A DNA stretch of 45,167 bases from Sphaerotilus sulfidivorans (lineage in GTDB: Bacteria; Pseudomonadota; Gammaproteobacteria; Burkholderiales; Burkholderiaceae_C): positions 1 to 45,167 of the forward strand of contig NZ_JACCPY010000031.1 of NCBI RefSeq assembly GCF_013426975.1, in the 5' to 3' direction. Position 1 is the stretch's first letter. Every line of letters begins with the position of its first letter. Positions 1 to 45,166 of this stretch are shown piece by piece. A program made the position numbers and the translations under genes. The notes below the pieces were generated by a model. The model was not told the origin of the DNA. It did not search any database and was given only the letters and a program-made list of their open reading frames with translations.

Positions 1-1093
1 AACGAGGGTGGTGACCGAACCCTTGTCCGGATCCGCCGCAATCGCCTCGAAGCCGCCGCCGGTGATCTCGCCGACCGAGATGGTGATGCTTTCCGAGCCC
101 TCGGCCAGTGCGTCGTCGATCGTGCTCTGGTCGAAGTCGACCGAACTCTGCCCGGCCGGAATGGTGACCGAGGTGACGGCGGTGTAGTCCGAACCGTCCG
201 TGGCGGTGCCGGAGTAGGTGAGCTTGATGGTGACGTCAGTCGCGGCCGGCTGGCTCAGCGAGACGGTGAACTTGGCCGTCTCACCCTCGGTGACCGAGCC
301 GGAAGCCGGGCCGGTGATCGAGACCAGACAGGTGTCCTCGGCGCCCGGCGTGCCGCCGCCCGGGCCGCCGACATCATCGGTAACGAGGGTGGTGACCGAA
401 CCCTTGTCCGGATCCGCCGCAATCGCCTCGAAGCCGCCGCCGGTGATCTCGCCGACCGAGATGGTGATGCTTTCCGAGCCCTCGGCCAGTGCGTCGTCGA
501 TCGTGCTCAGGTCGAAGTCGACCGAACTCTGTCCGGCCGGAATGGTGACCGAGGTGACGGCGGTGTAGTCCGAGCCGTCGGTGGCGGTGCCGGAGTAGGT
601 GAGCTTGATGGTGACGTCGGTGGCTGCCGGCTGGCTCAGCGAGACGGTGAACTTGGCTGTCTCGCCCTCAGTGACCGAGCCGGAAGCCGGGCCGGTGATC
701 GAGACCAGACAGGTGTCCTCAGCTCCAGGCGTGCCGCCGTCCTTGCCTCCGACATCATCGGTAACGAGGGTGATGACCGAACCCTTGGCCGGATCCGCCG
801 CAATCGCCTCGAAGCCACCGCCGGTGATCTCGCCGACCGAGATGGTGATGCTTTCCGAGCCTTCGGCCAGCGCGTCGTCGATCGTGCTCAGATCAAATTC
901 GACCGAACTCTGCCCGGCCGGAATGGTGACCGAGGTGACGGCGGTGTAGTCCGAGCCGTCGGTGGCGGTGCCGGAGTAGGTGAGCTTGACGGTGACGTCG
1001 GTGGCGGCAGGCTGGCTCAGCGAGACGGTGAACTTTGCGGTCTCGCCCTCGGTGATCGCGCCGGAAGCCGGGCCCACCAAGCCGACGAAAACC
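1..1093 (-). repeat. 381-bp tandem repeats encoding adhesin domains
   Basis: The same sequence recurs at a fixed period of 381 bp, seen for example at plus-strand positions 231, 612 and 993. Copies cover roughly 1093-713, 712-332 and 331-1, the last cut by the window edge. They differ by scattered single bases, many silent, and 381 is a multiple of 3, so copy number can change without breaking the frame. Each encodes one 127-residue Calx-beta-like domain. The copy nearest the N terminus diverges most at its start (VFVGLVGPASGAI instead of CLVSITGPASGSV). Confidence 0.9.
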
Positions 1094-10136: not shown

Positions 10137-10772
10137 ATGAGGATCGAAACGAGCCGTCTGTCGCGTGCGGCCGCCTTGCTGCTGGCGTCGGTGATGGCGG
10201 TCGGCACCCTGTCGGGCTGCGGCAGCATCGGTCGCCATCCGCCGGCGCCGAAGTCGGCGGAGACGCCGGATCACCGCTACAAGATCGGTCCGCTGGACAC
10301 GCTCAACATCGTCGTCTGGCGCAACCCCGAGCTGTCGGCGACCGTCACGGTGCGCCCGGATGGCCGCATCTCGACGCCGCTGGTCGAGGATCTGCAGGCC
10401 TCGGGCAAGAACCCGTACGACCTGTCGCGCGAGATCGAGAAGGAGCTGAGCAAGGTCATCCGCGACCCGGTGGTCACGGTGGTGGTCGGCTCCTTCCAGG
10501 GCGTCTACAGCGAGCAGATCCGCATCGTCGGCGAGGCCGCGCGTCCGCAGAGCGTCGCCTTCCGCCAGAACATGAGCCTGCTCGACGTGATGATCCAGTC
10601 CGGCGGACTGACCGACTTCGCCGACGGCAATGCCGCGGTGCTGGTGCGTGGCGCCGAGGGGGGCAAGCAGTACAGCATCCGCCTGAAGGATCTGCTCAAG
10701 CGCGGCGACATCTCGGCCAACGTCGATGTGAAGCCCGGCGACATCATCATCGTGCCGCAGAGCTGGTTCTGA
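10137..10772 (+). CDS. Exopolysaccharide export lipoprotein, XrtA/PEP-CTERM type (Wza/EpsE-like)
   Basis: A 211-residue outer-membrane polysaccharide export protein. The N terminus is a lipoprotein signal ending in the lipobox LSGC (Cys28). It is followed by a poly_export domain (YKIGPLDTLNIVVWRNPELS, TVRPDGRISTPLVEDLQASG, VVTVVVGSFQG) and a SLBB-like domain (IRIVGEAARPQSVAFRQNMS, GDIIIVPQSWF). It should form or gate the outer-membrane channel for the polymer. The ATG at 10137 is preferred because AGAGAGGA lies 6 nt before it and it gives a proper lipoprotein signal; an in-frame ATG at 10116 is possible. The length is short for Wza but normal for the exosortase-linked family (TIGR03027, recalled). 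Confidence 0.92.
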   Translation: MRIETSRLSRAAALLLASVMAVGTLSGCGSIGRHPPAPKSAETPDHRYKIGPLDTLNIVVWRNPELSATVTVRPDGRISTPLVEDLQASGKNPYDLSREIEKELSKVIRDPVVTVVVGSFQGVYSEQIRIVGEAARPQSVAFRQNMSLLDVMIQSGGLTDFADGNAAVLVRGAEGGKQYSIRLKDLLKRGDISANVDVKPGDIIIVPQSWF

Positions 10773-10869
10773 GCACGCCTGCCAAGCACGTGGCCGTGTC
10801 CGTCGCGCCGCCCGCCTGCTGCGGGGGCCCGGACCGGTCAGAACTGACGATTACAGGTAGACAGCCGGT

Positions 10870-36115: not shown

Positions 36116-37733
<1,618 letters not shown>

Positions 37734-37744
<11 letters not shown>

Positions 37745-39077
37745 ATGGGCAAAGCCTGAGGCTATCTCGGAGTTGTTAGCGCGGCATGGCGGGTCAATCA
37801 AGACCGGCCCATTCGGAACAACGCTAAAGGCCAGCGAGTACGCAAGCGTCGGCGTACCTCTCATTTCCGTACGGGAGATTGGACATGGCTCCTTTCACGT
37901 CGATGCCAAGACACCTCGGGTAGATGCCGCGACCTTGGCTCGGCTTCCCGAGTACATCCTTGAAGAGGGTGATATCGTTTTCGCCCGCAAAGGCGGTATC
38001 GAGCGATGTGCTTTGGTACGGAAGCAGCAGGCTGGGTGGTTTCTTGGCTCCGATGGGATTCGACTGCGGCCACCGAAAGTCTGTGATGCACGCTTCCTCG
38101 CCTACTCATTGCAGACGCAGGCAGTGAAGGACTGGCTGGTCCAGCATTCGACAGGTTCCACGATGGCCTCGTTGAATCAATCTACGATTGGGCGTCTTCC
38201 AGTTGCATTTCCGTCCGTTTCGACGCAGCGGGCGGTTGCTGACACGCTGGAATTTTTCGACGACCGCATCGACCTCCTGCGCCAAACCAACGCCACCCTC
38301 GAATCCATCGCTCAAGCCCTGTTCAAGAGCTGGTTCATCGACTTCGACCCGGTGCGCGCCAAGGCCGAAGGCCGCGAGCCCTTGGGGCTGGATGCGGCCA
38401 CGGCGGCGCTGTTTCCGGCGGAGTTCGAGGAGTCGGCGCTGGGAGTGATTCCGAAGGGGTGGACGGTTCAGCCCATCGGCGACTTGGTCGAGACGGTTGG
38501 GGGCTCAACACCAGACACAAAGAACGAGGCCTTCTGGGAGCCTGCGGCCCACCACTGGACTTCACCCAAGGATCTATCGGGAGCTACCGCACCCGTATTG
38601 CTCGGTACGGAGCGGAAGGTCAGTGCTGCGGGTCTTGCCAAGATTTCATCGGGCTTGCTTCCTGTGGGAACGCTGCTCATGTCGTCGCGCGCGCCGATTG
38701 GTTATCTCAGCTTGACTCAGGTGCCGGTGGCCATCAACCAAGGCTACATCGCGATGCCTCCGGGTGGACGCCTGCCGCCGGAGTACATGTACTTCTGGTG
38801 CCAGCACAACATGGATGCCATCAAGGGCCGTGCCAATGGCTCGACGTTCATGGAAATCAGCAAGAAGGCCTTCAGACCAATTCCGTCGTTGCTGCCTGCA
38901 CTCGAGGTGATCGCGCGGTTCACTGATTTCGCTGCAATGACGTTCGAACGTATCACCATGAATGAGCGCCAAGCATTGGCGCTGGTCGAGCTTCGCAACA
39001 CGCTCTTGCCCCGCCTCATCTCCGGCAAGCTGCGCCTGCCGGAGGCGCAGGAACAACTGGCGGACGTCCTCGCATGA
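37734..39077 (+). CDS. hsdS: Type I restriction-modification specificity subunit HsdS
   Basis: A 447-residue DNA-recognition subunit with two target-recognition domains. TRD1 spans about 10-165 ([29 protein letters not shown]). The central conserved helix is [20 protein letters not shown] followed by [15 protein letters not shown]2 spans about 240-400 ([47 protein letters not shown]), and the C-terminal conserved helix has [17 protein letters not shown]. Each TRD reads half of a bipartite site; the site cannot be predicted here. TRD1 DNA drops to about 55% GC, as expected for exchanged domains. Overlaps: 11 bp with hsdM, and an ATGA overlap with a following 31-codon stub. Confidence 0.94.
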
Positions 39078-39169
39078 AAGCCGCGCTCGGCAAGCTGGAG
39101 CGCATCCCGCTGCGCAAGGCATGGGCGCAACTTCAAGTCGCTGTTCAAGGCGTTGTGTTGATGGTTTGA
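39074..39169 (+). pseudogene. 5' stub of a DUF4268-like gene after hsdS
   Basis: An ATGA overlap with the hsdS stop opens a 31-codon frame starting [18 protein letters not shown], which resembles the N terminus of DUF4268-type proteins often found in type I restriction loci. After that Trp-Ala the similarity stops, and the frame soon ends. In another frame the same DNA reads GRNFKSLFKALC then stop, like the end of some other gene. This suggests a deletion that joined the start of one gene to the end of another. Confidence 0.5.
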
Positions 39170-39170
39170 A

Positions 39171-40100
39171 ATGATTAATCAGGGGGCGACATTGAATTTC
39201 GATATAGAACAATATCTCTTGCCTAGGCCGAATCATCACGGCTGGGATCCGAGCGGGCTCATTGAGCTGCTTCCGCTTTTCAGGCGAGCGTATCCTGGAT
39301 GCATCGCGGATGATCTGATGTCGTTTCAATTGTCCCGCGATTCCTGGCCTGGGAGTGTTGATTACGGTATCAGGGCTGTCCGACCTGATGGTGATCAGGT
39401 GGGCTCCGCATTGGCAGAGTTTGATCGTGGCATCTACGGTCACTTTGAATTCTCGCCGAATCATTACCCGATCGACTTGATATATCGCCTTCTTGAGCCT
39501 GAGTATATTCATCATCTTCAAGAAGCTGTTGGTCTGTTCTCTCCGGCGGCATATGAGATGCTTTGCCGCTTTGTTCGTGAGCAAAGCACATGGCAACAAA
39601 CTGAATCTGCGGCCAAAGGAAATCAGGAGCGTGCCGACTTCTTCCGTGAAGTCGCCATTGAACTGGCGGAGCATCTGGCCAGTCCGGTCGACTTGGTGGA
39701 GCCCACGATCCGGGAGATCAAGTCTCAGGAATCCTTCGGCTTGAGAGCAGAGCAGGGGACATCGCGGTGGCGTGAGCTCGGAGCGGAGGCTTTCGAGCCC
39801 TCCCTGTTGCACGAGATTGCCAAGAGCGATGTGGAGTCGGAGATCTGGCAGCAGTTCTATGAGCTTCCGGAACCTGTGCAGCTGGCCGTATGGTTTTCGA
39901 CGGTGGTGGAGAAAGAGCTGCCGGGCGGAGACTGTTTGACGCAGTGGGATGCACCCTCGGAACCGCGCAAAGAGTGGAAGTTCTGGGGGCTGGATGACTT
40001 GTTCGACAACGTCTGCCGGCAAGTGATGGGGCAGGCCAGCGAGGATTATTTCTCCGCCAGAGAACGCGCCGCCACGATCGACCAAGACGAGGACGACTGA
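39171..40100 (+). CDS. Hypothetical protein, unknown family, within the restriction locus
   Basis: A 309-residue acidic protein I do not recognise. It is soluble, with no signal peptide or membrane span. Features: a Trp/aromatic-rich N half (RDSWPGSVDYGIRAV, YGHFEFSPNHYPIDLIYRLL) and a helical C half (ERADFFREVAIELAEHLASP, VESEIWQQFYELPEPVQLAV), ending in an acidic tail (TIDQDEDD). Two sampled 60-base lines count to 45% and 40% GC, far below the core genome, so it is recently acquired. It begins one base after the stub stop codon and ends just before an hsdR-like stub. Possible roles include an anti-phage or restriction accessory protein; this is location only. Confidence 0.75.
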   Translation: MINQGATLNFDIEQYLLPRPNHHGWDPSGLIELLPLFRRAYPGCIADDLMSFQLSRDSWPGSVDYGIRAVRPDGDQVGSALAEFDRGIYGHFEFSPNHYPIDLIYRLLEPEYIHHLQEAVGLFSPAAYEMLCRFVREQSTWQQTESAAKGNQERADFFREVAIELAEHLASPVDLVEPTIREIKSQESFGLRAEQGTSRWRELGAEAFEPSLLHEIAKSDVESEIWQQFYELPEPVQLAVWFSTVVEKELPGGDCLTQWDAPSEPRKEWKFWGLDDLFDNVCRQVMGQASEDYFSARERAATIDQDEDD

Positions 40101-40101
40101 A

Positions 40102-40188
40102 ATGGGTGCATTTCTTGAAGAGCACGGCGAACAGGCCACGCTCGAATGGCTGGCGGCTCAGGTCATGGCGGTTGGGGTGGCAGCATGA
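40102..40188 (+). pseudogene. In-frame remnant of a second hsdR 5' end
   Basis: A 28-codon frame, MGAFLEEHG followed by EQATLEWLAA, then unrelated codons to a TGA that overlaps the kinase start (ATGA). Its middle is 29 bp that match the true hsdR start region (41125-41153) with one mismatch and in the same reading frame. It is therefore a truncated copy of an hsdR N terminus, possibly from a different allele because the first nine residues differ. It may now act as a leader peptide for the kinase gene. Confidence 0.7.
40129..40157 (+). repeat. Direct repeat, left copy (hsdR 5' segment)
   Basis: 29 bp shared with 41125-41153, one mismatch at 40134, the last 23 bp identical. The copies are 996 bp apart and bracket the kinase and its partner gene. 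Confidence 0.85.
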
Positions 40189-40802
40189 CGGCGCAGCAAC
40201 CGCCCCGGCTGGTGGTGGTCGGCGGCCCCAACGGGGCAGGCAAGACCACGCTTGCATGCGCCTATGCTGACGCGCACGGCCTGCGTTATCTCGGCGCTGA
40301 TGACATCGCGGCGCAGTTGTCGCCGCAGGATCCGGCGGCAGCTCGCGTGGCGGCGGCACGGGGATTTTCGCGAGCGCTGCGGCAGGCCGTCGCGGCAGGC
40401 GAGTCGCTGGTGGTCGAGTCCACACTCAGCGGCGGCAGTCTGGGTGCGCACCTGGCGGCAGCGCGCCAGGCGGGCTATGCGCTGACCCTGGTGATGGTCT
40501 ACCTCGATTCGGTGGAACTGTGCCTGCGCCGCGTCGCCCAGCGCGTGGCCGCCGGCGGGCATGACGTGCCCGAGGCCGATGTGCGCCGCCGCTATGGCCG
40601 CAGCCTGCAACAATTCCTGGCGCGCTACCGCCTGCTGGCCGACGACTGGCTGGTGGTGTTCAACGGCGAGGCCGGCTACGTGACGGTGGCCGAGGGCTCA
40701 GGCGGACAGATGGCGTCGGTGCTGGATGAAGCCCGCTGGGCGCAACTGATCGAACAGTCCGTCGCCGGAGTGGCGCCGGACACGGAGGAAAAGCATGACT
40801 GA
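40185..40802 (+). CDS. Zeta-toxin-like P-loop kinase (COG4185 type)
   Basis: A 205-residue P-loop protein: Walker A GGPNGAGKTT at about 14-23, ADDIAAQLSP, VVESTLSGGSLGAHL, a hydrophobic strand VMVYLDSVELCLRRVAQRV, and HDVPEADVRRRYGRSLQQFL with the basic residues typical of zeta-like kinases. Zeta toxins phosphorylate UDP-sugars of peptidoglycan synthesis; COG4185 members are related, but their substrates are mostly untested. The start ATG overlaps the hsdR-like stub stop. Its own stop overlaps the next small gene by 8 bp. Its position between hsdS and hsdR is unusual and suggests a toxin, maintenance or defence role for the island. Confidence 0.8.
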   Translation: MTAQQPPRLVVVGGPNGAGKTTLACAYADAHGLRYLGADDIAAQLSPQDPAAARVAAARGFSRALRQAVAAGESLVVESTLSGGSLGAHLAAARQAGYALTLVMVYLDSVELCLRRVAQRVAAGGHDVPEADVRRRYGRSLQQFLARYRLLADDWLVVFNGEAGYVTVAEGSGGQMASVLDEARWAQLIEQSVAGVAPDTEEKHD

Positions 40803-41004
40803 AGCGACTCCTGTGCCGTCCCCCTCGGCGGCCGACACGCCAATCCCGCAGGACGTGCAGGCCCGCCGCGCCGACATCCTGCGCATCGGCAATCGCGCCG
40901 CGGCTGCGGTGCAGGAAGCCAACCGCCAGCGCGGCATCGCCAACTGGTACTCGCTGCGCGGACGCATGGTCAACGACGCTGTGTCCGCCGCATCAGGGAA
41001 GTGA
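40795..41004 (+). CDS. Small protein paired with the zeta-like kinase, candidate antitoxin
   Basis: A 69-residue protein overlapping the kinase gene by 8 bp, hence translated with it. A Pro-rich N-terminal 20 residues is followed by one or two helices (QARRADILRIGNRAAAAVQE, ANRQRGIANWYSLRGRMVND). There is no known DNA-binding motif that I can name. The tight overlap and small size suggest a regulator or neutraliser of the kinase, but this is inference. An intrinsic terminator follows directly. Confidence 0.65.
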   Translation: MTEATPVPSPSAADTPIPQDVQARRADILRIGNRAAAAVQEANRQRGIANWYSLRGRMVNDAVSAASGK

Positions 41005-41011
41005 TGACAGC

Positions 41012-41042
41012 ATCGACACGTCCTGGGCATGTGTCGATTTTT
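41012..41042 (+). terminator. Rho-independent terminator after the kinase cassette
   Basis: ATCGACAC (41012-41019) and GTGTCGAT (41031-41038) form a perfect 8-bp stem with an 11-nt loop, followed by TTTTT. It separates the kinase cassette from hsdR, which then needs its own promoter in the next 65 bp; ACATG/CATGT motifs occur three times there. Confidence 0.75.
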
Positions 41043-41106
41043 GAGCAAGAAATAAACATGTCCCGTCTTCATGTCGAAGGCGTGAACATGAGGGGAGTCT
41101 CTGGAC

Positions 41107-44100
41107 ATGACGGAAGCCGACGTTGAACACGCCACGCTCGAATGGCTGGCGGCGCTGGGCTGGGAGGTCGGGCATGGGTCTGACGGGTCGCCGCCGGATA
41201 CCAGGACGCCCGGCACCGAGCGCGACACCTACCGCGAGACGGCGCTGAAGCACCGCTTGCGCGACGCCATCCGGAGCCTGAACCCGCACATCCCCGCCAG
41301 CGCGCAGGACGAGGCGTGCCGGCAGGTGCTCAACCCCAACCTGCCCGGCCTGGTGCAGGCCAACCGCCAGATGCACCGCTGGATGGTGGAGGGCGTGCCG
41401 GTCGAGTACCAGAAGGACGGCGAGACCCGCGGCGACCGGGTGCGGCTGGTGGACTGGTCCGACGTGGCGCGCAACGACTGGCTGGCGCTCAACCAGTTCA
41501 GCATCCAGGGGCCGAAGCGGACCCGCCGCCCGGACGTGGTGCTCTTCCTCAACGGCCTGCCGGTGGTGGTGGTCGAGCTCAAGAACCCCGGCGACGAAAA
41601 CGCCGACCTGTGGTCCGCCTTCAACCAGCTGCAGACCTACAAGGACGACATTCCCGACCTGTTCCTGAGCAATGCGCTGCTGGTCATCAGCGATGGCCTC
41701 GAGGCCCGCGTCGGCTCGCTGACGGCCGACCGGGAGCGCTTCATGGCCTGGCGCACCATCGACGGCGAGACGGTCGATCCGCTGGGCGCCATGCGCGAGC
41801 TGGAGACGCTGGTGCATGGCCTGTTCCAGCGCGAGCTGCTGCTGGACTACCTGCGGCACTTCATCCTGTTCGAGGACGAGGGCCGGCTGGTCAAGAAGGT
41901 GGCCGGCTATCACCAGTTCCACGCGGTGCGCGCGGTGGTCGAGAGCGTGCTGGTGGCCTCCAGCCCCCAGGCCGAGGCCGCCCAGCGCGGCAAGGGCGGC
42001 GTGGTGTGGCACACGCAGGGCGCCGGCAAGAGCATCGAGATGACCTGCCTGGGGGGAAAGCTGATGCAGCACCCGGCCATGGGCAACCCGACCCTGGTGG
42101 TGGTGACCGACCGCAACGACCTGGACAACCAGCTGTTCGGCGTGTTCGCGGGCGCGGCCGAGCTGCTGCGCGAGACGCCGGTGCAGGCCGACACCCGGCC
42201 CCGCCTGCGCGAGCTGCTGAGCAACCGGCCCTCGGGCGGCATCATCTTCACGACCATCCAGAAGTTCACGCCGGGCGAGGACGAAGACAGCTTCCCGGTA
42301 CTCTCCGAGCGGCACAACATCGTCGTCATCTGCGACGAGGCCCACCGCAGCCAGTACGGCTTCAAGGCCAGCCTGCCCAAGCTGCAGAAGCAGATGAAGG
42401 CAGCGCGCAAGACCTCGGCGGCGAACGAGCCGATGGTGCTGCAGGCCGCCGAGCCGGTCGCGGACTACGGCCGGCTGCGCGACGTGCGCTACGGCTACGC
42501 CCAGCACCTGCGCGACGGTCTGCCGGGCGCCACCTTCGTCGCGTTCACTGGCACGCCGGTGTCCCTGGAGGACCGCGACACCCGGGCCGTGTTCGGCGAC
42601 TACGTGCACATCTACGACGTGGAGCAGGCGGTGAAGGATGGCGCCACGGTGCCCATCTACTACGAGAGCCGGCTGGCCCGCCTGGAGCTGAAGGAGGCCG
42701 AGACCACGCTGCTCGACGACGAGGTGGACGAACTCGCCGAGGACGAGGAAGACGACACCGCCAAGGCGGCGCAGCTGCGCCGCTGGGCTGCGCTGGAGAA
42801 GCTGGTGGGGGCGCCGCCGCGCCTGCAGAAGGTGGCCGCCGACCTGGTGGAGCACTTCGAGAACCGCCTGGCCAGCCTGGACGGCAAGGCCATGGTGGTG
42901 GCGATGAGCCGCGAGATCTGCGTGCACCTGTACGACGCCATCGTCGCGCTGCGCCCGGGCTGGCACGACCCGGACCCCGAGAAGGGCGTGGTCAAGATCA
43001 TCATGACCGGCTCGGCCTCGGACAAGGCGCTGCTCAAGCCGCACATCCACGGCCGGGACATCAAGAAGCGCCTGGAGCGCCGCTACAAGGATCCGGCCGA
43101 CCCCTTCAAGCTGGTCATCGTGCGCGACATGTGGCTGACCGGCTTCGATGCGCCGTGCATGCACACGATGTACGTCGACAAGCCGATGAAGGGCCACAAC
43201 CTGATGCAGGCCATCGCCCGGGTGAACCGGGTGTTCAAGGACAAGCCCGGCGGTCTGGTGGTCGACTACATCGGCATCGCCAACGAGCTGAAGGCCGCGC
43301 TGAAGGACTACACCCAGGCCAAGGGCAAGGGCCGACCGACCATCGCCGCCGAGGATGCCCTGGCGGTGCTGCTGGAGAAGATGGACGTGCTGCACGGCAT
43401 GCTGCACGGCTTCGACTACACCGCCTTCCGCACCCGGGCCTGGCAGCTGCTGCCCGGCGTGGCGAATCACGTCCTCGGCCTGGAGGATGGCAAGAAGCGC
43501 TTCGCCGATACCGTGCTGGCCGCCAGCAAGGCCTTCGCGCTGTGCTGCACCCTGGACGAGGCGCTGGCGCACCGGGATGAGCTGGCCTTCCTGCAGGCGG
43601 TGAAGGCCGCGCTGACCAAGTTCGGCAGCTCGGGCAGGAAGCTCAGCGACGAGCAGAAGGAGCACGCCCTCCGGCAGATCATGAGCAAGGCGGTGGTGAG
43701 CGCCGAGGTCATCGACATCTTCAAGGCGGTCGGCCTGAACCGGCCGGACATCGGCGTCCTGTCCGAGGAGTTTCTCGAAGACGTGCGCCACATGAAGGAG
43801 CGCAACCTGGCCGTCGAACTGCTGGACCGGCTGCTGAGGGACGACATCAAGGCGCGCTTCAAGACCAATGTGGTGCAGCAGGCCAGGTTCTCGGAGCTGC
43901 TGCAGCTCAGCCTGCAGCGCTACCGCAACCGTGCCATCGAGACCGCCCAGGTCATCGAGGAACTCATCGAGATGGCGAAGAAGTTCCACGAGGCTGCGCT
44001 GCAGGGCGACCGCCTGGGACTGACGCCCGACGAGCTGGCCTTCTACCATGCGCTGGCCACCAACGAGGCCGCGGTGCGGGAACTGGGCGACGCCACGCTC

Positions 44101-44301
44101 AAGAAGATCGCCGTGGAGCTGACGCTGAAGCTGAGGGCTTCGGTCACCGTGGACTGGTCGGTGCGCGAGACGGTGCGGGCCAGGCTCCGGGTGATGGTGA
44201 AGACCTTGCTCCGGCGCTACAAGTACCCGCCTGACAAGCAGGACGAGGCCACGGAGACGGTGCTCAAGCAGGCGGAGGCGCTGGCGGAGTCGCTGGTGTG
44301 A
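41107..44301 (+). CDS. hsdR: Type I restriction-modification system endonuclease subunit HsdR
   Basis: A 1064-residue motor/nuclease subunit. The N-terminal PD-(D/E)xK nuclease has RRPDVVLFLNGLPVVVVELK near residues 140-160. The helicase core has Walker A HTQGAGKSIEMT near 303, VTDRNDLDNQLF, the DEAH-type CDEAHRSQYG near 409, FTGTP (motif III), VRDMWLTGFDAPCMHTMYVD and GHNLMQAIARVNRVFKDKPG (motif VI, near 700). A helical C-terminal domain binds HsdM. The gene looks intact. A GGGGAG lies about 9 nt before the ATG. It is separated from hsdMS by 2.0 kb of other genes and has a terminator upstream, so it may be controlled separately. Confidence 0.96.
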   Translation: MTEADVEHATLEWLAALGWEVGHGSDGSPPDTRTPGTERDTYRETALKHRLRDAIRSLNPHIPASAQDEACRQVLNPNLPGLVQANRQMHRWMVEGVPVEYQKDGETRGDRVRLVDWSDVARNDWLALNQFSIQGPKRTRRPDVVLFLNGLPVVVVELKNPGDENADLWSAFNQLQTYKDDIPDLFLSNALLVISDGLEARVGSLTADRERFMAWRTIDGETVDPLGAMRELETLVHGLFQRELLLDYLRHFILFEDEGRLVKKVAGYHQFHAVRAVVESVLVASSPQAEAAQRGKGGVVWHTQGAGKSIEMTCLGGKLMQHPAMGNPTLVVVTDRNDLDNQLFGVFAGAAELLRETPVQADTRPRLRELLSNRPSGGIIFTTIQKFTPGEDEDSFPVLSERHNIVVICDEAHRSQYGFKASLPKLQKQMKAARKTSAANEPMVLQAAEPVADYGRLRDVRYGYAQHLRDGLPGATFVAFTGTPVSLEDRDTRAVFGDYVHIYDVEQAVKDGATVPIYYESRLARLELKEAETTLLDDEVDELAEDEEDDTAKAAQLRRWAALEKLVGAPPRLQKVAADLVEHFENRLASLDGKAMVVAMSREICVHLYDAIVALRPGWHDPDPEKGVVKIIMTGSASDKALLKPHIHGRDIKKRLERRYKDPADPFKLVIVRDMWLTGFDAPCMHTMYVDKPMKGHNLMQAIARVNRVFKDKPGGLVVDYIGIANELKAALKDYTQAKGKGRPTIAAEDALAVLLEKMDVLHGMLHGFDYTAFRTRAWQLLPGVANHVLGLEDGKKRFADTVLAASKAFALCCTLDEALAHRDELAFLQAVKAALTKFGSSGRKLSDEQKEHALRQIMSKAVVSAEVIDIFKAVGLNRPDIGVLSEEFLEDVRHMKERNLAVELLDRLLRDDIKARFKTNVVQQARFSELLQLSLQRYRNRAIETAQVIEELIEMAKKFHEAALQGDRLGLTPDELAFYHALATNEAAVRELGDATLKKIAVELTLKLRASVTVDWSVRETVRARLRVMVKTLLRRYKYPPDKQDEATETVLKQAEALAESLV
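41125..41153 (+). repeat. Direct repeat, right copy (within hsdR codons 7-16)
   Basis: The partner of the repeat at 40129-40157, in the same reading frame, encoding EHATLEWLAA here against EQATLEWLAA in the left copy. Confidence 0.85.
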
Positions 44302-44851: not shown

Positions 44852-45166
44852 TCAGCCGCTCGGCAGCAGCGACGGCACCGGGCCGGAGCCCAGCCAGGCG
44901 CGCAGCGCCTGCTCCATCCAATCGCGCAGGTCGCGGCCCTGGCGGCGGCAGCTCTCCATCGCGGAGAGGCCCCGGGCGACGAACTGCTGGCCGCGCGTCG
45001 AGCGCGTCGGGCCGCTGATCTTGCGCTTGAGCACCACCGCGCGCAGCGCCTGCTCGGCGGCGTTGTTGGTGGGCTCGACGCCGGGGTGGCGCACGAAGGT
45101 CCACAGCGAGACCTCCTGCGCGAGCAGGTTGGCGCAGGTCTGCGCGGTGCGCCGGCAGCCTGAGCG
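44852..45166 (-). CDS. IS66-family transposase, C-terminal part (runs off right edge)
   Basis: 105 codons open at the right edge. The sequence CANLLAQEVSLWTFVRHPGV, EPTNNAAEQALRAVVLKRKI, SGPTRSTRGQQFVARGLS matches the end of IS66-type (DDE) transposases; the Glu in TNNAAE is the last residue of the DDE triad. No other element gene is in the window, so whether it is complete or a remnant cannot be told. It marks the right flank of the accessory island. Confidence 0.85.
   Translation of the reverse strand, partial: RSGCRRTAQTCANLLAQEVSLWTFVRHPGVEPTNNAAEQALRAVVLKRKISGPTRSTRGQQFVARGLSAMESCRRQGRDLRDWMEQALRAWLGSGPVPSLLPSG

What the first reader, a model, noticed from the sequence alone, without database searches (positions are those of the whole stretch)
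40102..41153. Second hsdR 5' end and 29-bp direct repeats bracket a kinase cassette
An in-frame fragment EQATLEWLAA matches hsdR codons 7-16 at the DNA level (28 of 29 bp) 996 bp upstream of the real copy. The cassette between them holds the zeta-like kinase, its partner and a terminator. The simplest reading is that a cassette entered the start of hsdR and that a second hsdR start was kept or rebuilt, possibly from another allele because the first nine codons differ. Recombination between the repeats would remove the cassette exactly and leave a working hsdR, and the spacing of 332 codons keeps the frame.
Basis: partly seen in the sequence, partly recalled or inferred. Interest (0 to 1): 0.7.

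Follow-up and report, generated by a model that had tools for sequence, protein, structure and literature searches.

The report
Fossil hsdR starts mark stacked cargo
In this bacterium's DNA-cutting defence operon, a short leftover of an older hsdR gene start sits in front of a newer toxin-like gene pair and a second, intact hsdR, and a few other genomes carry the same kind of leftover, which suggests that such operons collect extra genes one layer at a time.

Summary
40129-40157 repeats 41125-41153 (28/29, 996 bp apart), the only such pair in the window outside a 381-bp tandem repeat. The 28-codon frame at 40102-40188 is the 5' end of an older hsdR allele: it resembles a same-genus hsdR (41/48) more than the hsdR now downstream (36/48). 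The slot between hsdS and hsdR holds at least 600 bp in 57 of 63 loci, so a kinase there is not itself strange; in print the slot is already called a potential hotspot.

The less familiar point is that hsdR-start stubs recur. L238 has AAA/DUF4276 - stub - Fic - hsdR. L219 has DUF3800 - stub - Fic - stub - RAYT - RhuM-like - hsdR. Fic-hsdR and RhuM-hsdR run together in other loci, so new cargo probably arrives attached to an hsdR start and is joined inside the old one. The window also keeps a 19-codon stub of a DUF4268 cargo gene after hsdS.

Best reading: serial stacking by recombination anchored in hsdR, with a non-homologous left junction. Exact excision is formally possible but was not observed. 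The function of the kinase/partner pair is inferred.

The parts
36116..37744 (+). hsdM (type I modification subunit)
   Evidence: PF02384 2.4e-102, PF12161 1.3e-24
37734..39077 (+). hsdS (specificity subunit), overlaps hsdM
   Evidence: PF01420 6.9e-26, two stretches
39074..39130 (+). 5' stub (about 19 codons) of a DUF4268 cargo gene, start overlapping the hsdS stop (ATGA); first fossil
   Evidence: 18 aa at 83% to the start of the intact L148 gene (PF14088); DNA match ends at 39129
39171..40100 (+). orf309, first intact cargo gene, no known family
   Evidence: no hit in Pfam, NCBIfam, PADLOC, PHROGs; own genome only
40102..40188 (+). hsdR 5' stub, 28 codons; hsdR-like part about 40111-40176
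   Evidence: profile score 18.1 against null maximum 6.4; 41/48 to L146; extension to 40176
40129..40157 (+). repeat copy 1
   Evidence: 28/29
40185..40802 (+). zeta-toxin-fold kinase, 205 aa
   Evidence: PF13671 3.9e-13, PF06414 1.8e-10 on the 218-aa frame; invariant K20, T22, D39, E78, T80, R116, R120, R135 in the alignment of 20; model pLDDT 92; nearest solved folds AvrRxo1, epsilon/zeta, PezT
40795..41004 (+). partner, 69 aa, candidate antitoxin
   Evidence: no family; a small neighbour with the same motif (G[IV]xNxYSxxG type) in 6 of 70 kinase loci
41012..41038 (+). hairpin followed by four T, possible weak terminator or attenuator
   Evidence: not listed by the scan
41107..44301 (+). intact hsdR, 1064 aa
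   Evidence: PF04313, PF18766, PF22679, PF11867; PADLOC REase_I, residues 2-1061
41125..41153 (+). repeat copy 2, inside hsdR codons 7-16

Best explanation
The hsdS-hsdR gap is a cargo slot that has been filled more than once. The oldest visible layer is a DUF4268 cargo gene, of which only the start remains. It was displaced by orf309 followed by an hsdR whose start was MGAFLEEHGEQATLEWLAA... Later, DNA carrying kinase - partner - hsdR start was joined to that hsdR at about codon 22 by a non-homologous (or microhomology) left junction, while the right side recombined homologously in hsdR. This left the old start as a stub, placed the new pair behind it and kept one intact hsdR. Shown: the layers and their order in the sequence, the allele difference, and the same stub - cargo - hsdR pattern in two other loci. 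Inferred: the time order and the recombination mechanism. Also inferred: the stub, whose start lies one base after the orf309 stop and whose stop overlaps the kinase start, now passes ribosomes from orf309 to the kinase; and the kinase with its partner is a toxin-antitoxin-like, growth-arresting second line of defence carried by the restriction operon.
For: Stub is hsdR-derived and closer to another allele than to its own hsdR. L238: stub (own hsdR 44/54, best other 48/54) between AAA_21/DUF4276 and Fic; its segment 2398-3700 (Fic plus hsdR start) matches L167 at 80% over 1,328 bp and L171, L160, L159, L161 over about 1.3 kb as one piece running into hsdR, and in those loci no extra hsdR start was found; the listed matches of the stub itself are hsdR starts and one other stub, L227. 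L219: DUF3800, stub, Fic, stub, RAYT, RhuM-like, hsdR; the RhuM-like stretch lies directly before an hsdR start also in L204, L207, L234 and L235. Cargo in the slot is general: 57 of 63 slots are at least 600 bp and 28 of 63 hsdS stops lie in an ATGA; six of eight opened plasmid records show Fic, PD-(D/E)XK, ATP-binding, BstXI-family or HrgA genes there. A zeta-like kinase follows hsdS with an ATGA overlap in L128. The DUF4268 stub in the window is a second fossil.
Against: No donor with kinase - partner - hsdR was found, so the left junction cannot be read. The chimera evidence in the window's hsdR is weak: identity to L146 is 84-87% in the first 300 bp and 91-92% from 300 to 2850, but falls to 85% again after 2850, and pairs without the window also diverge more at the 5' end (ratio 1.11 to 1.94); the breakpoint test gave p 0.032 and 0.035 in two of five comparisons (columns 419 and 569) and 0.22 to 0.80 in three, uncorrected. 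Slot fragments are not only 5' ends: of 24 fragment matches in 73 gaps, 13 were 5', 6 were 3', 5 internal, some probably start-prediction artefacts, so a purely downstream-anchored process is not proven. The RhuM-like stretch is not next to hsdR in L209 and L231. Stubs are rare: 2 of 75 loci. For L219 stub 2 and L220 the own hsdR is the best match, so another-allele origin is not shown there. Toxicity, antitoxin role and translation coupling are untested.
Confidence: 0.55

Rival explanations
1. Two complete hsd operons once lay in tandem (hsdM-hsdS-orf309-hsdR, then hsdM-hsdS-kinase-partner-hsdR). One deletion from the start of the first hsdR to the end of the second hsdS left the stub in front of the kinase.
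For: Gives the same final order; in 28 of 63 loci the hsdS stop lies in an ATGA, the kind of junction the kinase has with the stub; L128 has a zeta-like kinase in that position.
Against: The bases between stub and kinase match hsdR (12/18), so no hsdS tail is needed; I noticed no tandem intermediate, but did not search for one systematically.
Confidence: 0.17
2. One reading: a mobile cassette inserted at the start of hsdR and the start was duplicated or rebuilt; the flanking repeats let it be excised exactly, possibly as a switch.
For: Repeats in direct orientation, spacing a multiple of three, recombination would restore a full hsdR frame.
Against: No inverted pair joining the ends and no recombinase family in the insert; the stub is closer to other alleles than to the own hsdR start; the repeat is a conserved hsdR stretch; no excised form found, reads not available.
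Confidence: 0.13
3. The stub is kept because it works: a short leader frame that couples translation of the downstream pair to upstream genes, or a start that limits kinase expression; its origin is secondary.
For: TGA-A-ATG junction before it and ATGA after it; in L219 stub 1 ends two bases before the Fic start.
Against: In L238 about 50 bases separate the stub's stop from the first listed Fic start, and in L227 the stub lies antisense to hsdR; coupling was not tested anywhere.
Confidence: 0.1
4. Assembly or chance artefact.
For: Draft assembly of 126 contigs; reads not available.
Against: Genes overlap tightly, frames are open, and two other genomes show the same architecture.
Confidence: 0.03

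Closest known systems
Defence genes embedded between hsdS and hsdR (DarTG2 in the RptR-controlled island; PMC12255303, passages read)
   Same: Toxin-antitoxin cargo in the same gap of a type I operon; the paper calls the site a potential recombination hotspot.
   Different: In the passages read I saw no left-over hsdR starts or stacked layers.
T6SS effector-immunity arrays formed by sequential displacement (PMC5361080, abstract and passages read)
   Same: New modules join next to a conserved anchor, old gene parts stay behind as a record; homology-facilitated illegitimate recombination proposed there.
   Different: There whole immunity genes at the 3' side are kept; here short 5' gene starts are kept and the anchor would be hsdR downstream.
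PrrC in a type I locus (review PMC12707154, passages read)
   Same: Toxin gene inside a type I operon.
   Different: PrrC is a tRNA nuclease; here a zeta-fold kinase with a small partner, role not shown.
Epsilon/zeta, PezAT and AvrRxo1:ORF2
   Same: Kinase fold.
   Different: 10-21% identity over the aligned parts in the rows listed; partner has no family hit and lies downstream; substrate unknown.

Membership tests
Type I restriction-modification operon | HsdM with N6-methylase and HsdM_N domains | tested here: met
Type I restriction-modification operon | HsdS with two target recognition domains | tested here: met
   PF01420 with two stretches
Type I restriction-modification operon | HsdR with HSDR_N, SWI2/SNF2 motor and C-terminal domain, uninterrupted | tested here: met
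   1064 aa
Zeta toxin superfamily | Zeta fold and Walker A with conserved acidic and arginine residues (which residues matter is recalled, not from a call) | tested here: met
   PF06414 41.1 bits against cut-off 22.3 on the 218-aa frame
Zeta toxin superfamily | Toxic kinase activity on a sugar nucleotide or NAD | not testable with these tools
   needs an assay
Epsilon/zeta or PezAT toxin-antitoxin system | Partner homologous to epsilon or PezA | tested here: not met
   no hit for the 69-aa partner in Pfam, NCBIfam, PADLOC, PHROGs; folds of the partner were not compared
Transposable or integron cassette | Terminal inverted repeats or recombinase within the inserted stretch | tested here: not met
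   no inverted pair joining its ends, no recombinase family among its two genes; attC sites not searched for
Product of homology-facilitated illegitimate recombination | One homologous end, one end without homology | tested here: inconclusive
   fits L238 against L167 and others; no donor for the window; chimera evidence weak

The most novel reading that the evidence does not exclude
The hsdS-hsdR gap of type I operons is a self-stacking cargo site: incoming cargo travels with an hsdR start, hsdR is the recombination anchor, and each event leaves the previous start as a short stub. Stub arrays are then a readable record of cargo history, and only stubs too short for efficient homologous recombination persist because longer ones would delete the cargo again.
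Probability: 0.3. Interest if true: 0.7.

Novelty: new variant of a known kind. Interest (0 to 1): 0.5.

Why it matters
Embedded defence genes in type I operons are known, but how they come and go is less clear to me from what I read. Left-over hsdR starts give a sequence signature that can be searched for by profile, that suggests a direction (older layers next to hsdS) and that ties cargo exchange to hsdR itself. It makes the mechanism testable by comparison of close strains and by a simple transformation assay.

Tried and rejected
Rejected: that the stub tail is the end of a donor hsdS. I considered this because hsdS stops so often lie in an ATGA (28 of 63), but the tail matches hsdR in register at 12/18. 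Led nowhere: orf309 (no relatives; single-sequence model pLDDT 38); partner in plasmids. Literature: searches list no paper that I recognised as reporting left-over hsdR starts between hsdS and hsdR; only listings were seen except for the papers named with passages, and the library holds open-licence papers only.

Not counted as cases: L223 (contig end); L222 (stub followed by a large antisense frame read by eye as a transposase); L221 and L229 (two hsdR starts, but hsdR damaged or unclear); L220, L226 and L227 (stub not in front of an intact hsdR on the same strand); L224, L225, L228, L230-L237 (broken, orphan or distant copies, seen as frames, some also).

Rows dropped: one search has 109 rows, the own locus included; 74 of the other 108 were fetched with upstream DNA, 34 were not. 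hsdS ends were found in 63 of the 75 loci. From I chose places by eye and fetched 20 regions. E <= 0.1 in those calls misses stubs as weak as the window's own (E 0.35). Of 216 matching plasmid records 8 were opened. In one search stub 1 of L219 was compared in the wrong register; one search has the right one (78/105 to the own hsdR). Before this filing I lowered the main confidence from 0.6 to 0.55 and raised two rivals slightly, because the hsdR identity profile falls at the 3' end as well and the RhuM-like stretch is not next to hsdR in L209 and L231.
Full report
Observation. The repeat is real: 40129-40157 and 41125-41153 match at 28 of 29 bases, 996 bp apart, in the same frame. Apart from a 381-bp tandem repeat at the window's start, it is the only same-strand 28/29 pair in 45,167 bases. 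The short frame 40102-40188 (28 codons) starts one base after the orf309 stop, and its own stop overlaps the kinase start at 40185 as ATGA. I take 40185 rather than the upstream ATG at 40146 as the kinase start because a close full-length relative, L004, begins MSHSPSPRLVLVGGPNGAGKTT.

What the stub is. Relatives of hsdR at 86-88% identity over the first 250 residues carry nearly the same bases there (L145, L146, L147), so the repeat is a conserved part of this hsdR family. A 20-residue profile of hsdR starts, scanned over the upstream DNA of 75 loci, gave two clear extra copies: 53.6 bits in L200 (the same place as L238) and 18.1 bits in the window; the next forward window scored 7.0, and the maximum of 511,267 reverse-strand windows was 6.4. 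By DNA the stub is nearest to the same-genus L146 (41/48), then L145 (39), L147 (38) and its own hsdR and L150 (36). After the strong block the next 18 bases match the own hsdR at 12/18 (null frequency about 0.001), the last 8 at 2/8. The stub is therefore about 22 codons of an older hsdR allele.

The slot. hsdS ends could be located in 63 of the 75 loci. Of these 63, 57 have at least 600 bp between hsdS and hsdR, 4 have 180 bp or less, and 28 have the hsdS stop in an ATGA. Among the closest relatives the cargo is Abi_C (L145), SLFN_AlbA_2 (L146), SIR2_2 (L147) and DUF4268 (L148). Eight of 216 matching plasmid records were opened; in six of them hsdS, cargo and hsdR are annotated in order: Fic plus PD-(D/E)XK, PDDEXK plus LprI-like (two records, one with a further hypothetical gene), an ATP-binding protein, a BstXI-family enzyme, and HrgA. 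In the other two no hsdS is annotated in the stretch shown. A paper on the RptR island states that DarTG2, and in four genomes another gene pair, lie between hsdS and hsdR and calls the site a potential recombination hotspot (PMC12255303, passages). So cargo in this slot is known; the left-over hsdR start is the unusual part.

Parallel cases. A profile of hsdR starts (A1) was run on 369 class genomes (71 with a match at E <= 0.1) and 397 family genomes (116 with a match); some of these matches are chance. The window's own stub is below that threshold (E 0.35), so stubs are undercounted. Twenty regions chosen by eye were fetched. In L238 the order is AAA_21 ATPase, DUF4276 (just below its Pfam cut-off), hsdR stub, Fic, intact hsdR. 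The stretch 2398-3700 of L238, Fic plus the start of hsdR, matches L167 at 79.6% over 1,328 bp and L171, L160, L159 and L161 over about 1.3 kb as one piece; the listed matches of 2291-2343 are hsdR starts and the L227 stub. In L219 the order is hsdM, hsdS, DUF3800, stub 1, Fic, stub 2, an IS200-like (RAYT; name recalled) gene with REP-like repeats (by eye), a RhuM-like gene (name recalled; HPFSDGNKRS motif read by eye, no Pfam run) and an intact hsdR. The RhuM-like frame overlaps the hsdR start in L219. The same stretch lies directly before an hsdR start in L204, L207, L234 and L235 and before a broken copy in L228, but not in L209 and L231. Thus cargo and hsdR start can travel as one piece while older starts stay behind. 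Together with the window these are three loci with four stubs before an intact hsdR; the homologous parts end at about codon 22 (window), 18 (L238), 36 and 42 (L219).

Other left-overs. The window has a second fossil: 39074-39130, overlapping the hsdS stop, encodes [18 protein letters not shown], the start of a DUF4268 gene that is intact in L148 (18 residues at 83%). L164, L185 and L188 also have DUF4268 starts of 31-34 matching residues; the one in L185 may be a longer, shifted remnant. A control over 73 gaps gave 24 fragment matches, 13 of them 5' ends, 6 3' tails and 5 internal; some of the 5' matches are probably start-prediction errors, and 13 against 6 is no firm bias. Damaged or orphan hsdR starts occur too (L220, L221, L222, L224, L226, L227).

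Mechanism. The data fit joining of cargo - hsdR start to an old hsdR near its start, with homology on the hsdR side. This resembles homology-facilitated illegitimate recombination (abstract start of PMC3240628 in the listing) as proposed for type VI effector arrays (PMC5361080, passages). The window's hsdR is closest to L146 in its body (91-92% from base 300 to 2850) and less so in the first 300 bp (84-87%), as a chimera would be, but identity also falls to 85% after base 2850, and pairs without the window show lower 5' identity too. The breakpoint test gave p 0.032 and 0.035 in two of five comparisons and 0.22 to 0.80 in three, uncorrected. I count this as a hint only. That only short stubs persist could be because longer repeats would delete the cargo again; this is inference.

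Function. The kinase model (pLDDT 92) is nearest to AvrRxo1:ORF2, epsilon/zeta and PezT at 10-21% identity, and the residues that I recall as catalytic are invariant in the alignment of 20. A small neighbour with the partner's motif stands beside the kinase in 6 of 70 kinase loci, found by a pattern; in none of the six was an hsd gene detected in the stretch held. A zeta-like kinase of 140 aa lies directly after hsdS by ATGA overlap in L128, before a DUF1016/YhcG nuclease and hsdR, so such kinases have probably entered the slot at least twice. A toxin-antitoxin-like guard role is likely but untested.

Verdict. Real feature, ordinary slot, uncommon fossil. Interest 0.5.

Noticed in passing
L037 about 1-1300: In a Rubrivivax MAG a CRISPR-like array (repeat GTGTTCCCCGCGTGTGCGGGGATGAACCG) runs directly into a 5'-truncated copy of this kinase (79% identity, residues 118-194) followed by the partner (75%).
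   Followed up: no
window 1-1074: 381-bp tandem repeat, 2.8 copies, 95% matches, at the window's start.
   Followed up: no
L219 9050-9583; L220 3505-4029 and L221 164-547 (these two on the reverse complement): IS200-like (RAYT) genes lie beside duplicated hsdR starts in three loci; in L219 REP-like repeats begin at the stub 2 break. Family confirmed by Pfam for L219 only.
   Followed up: partly
window 44852-45166: End of an IS66 transposase on the minus strand about 550 bp after hsdR.
   Followed up: no
window 39171-40100: orf309 has no relative in the collections searched for it.
   Followed up: partly
L227 about 10739-10791, minus strand: An hsdR stub of 53 bp in opposite orientation about 1 kb after an intact hsdR; its similarity to the L238 stub ends at about the same point as that stub's similarity to several hsdR starts.
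   Followed up: no
L115 8004-10039 (minus strand): Another zeta-like kinase directly beside an hsdM-like gene in a distantly related hsd locus.
   Followed up: no
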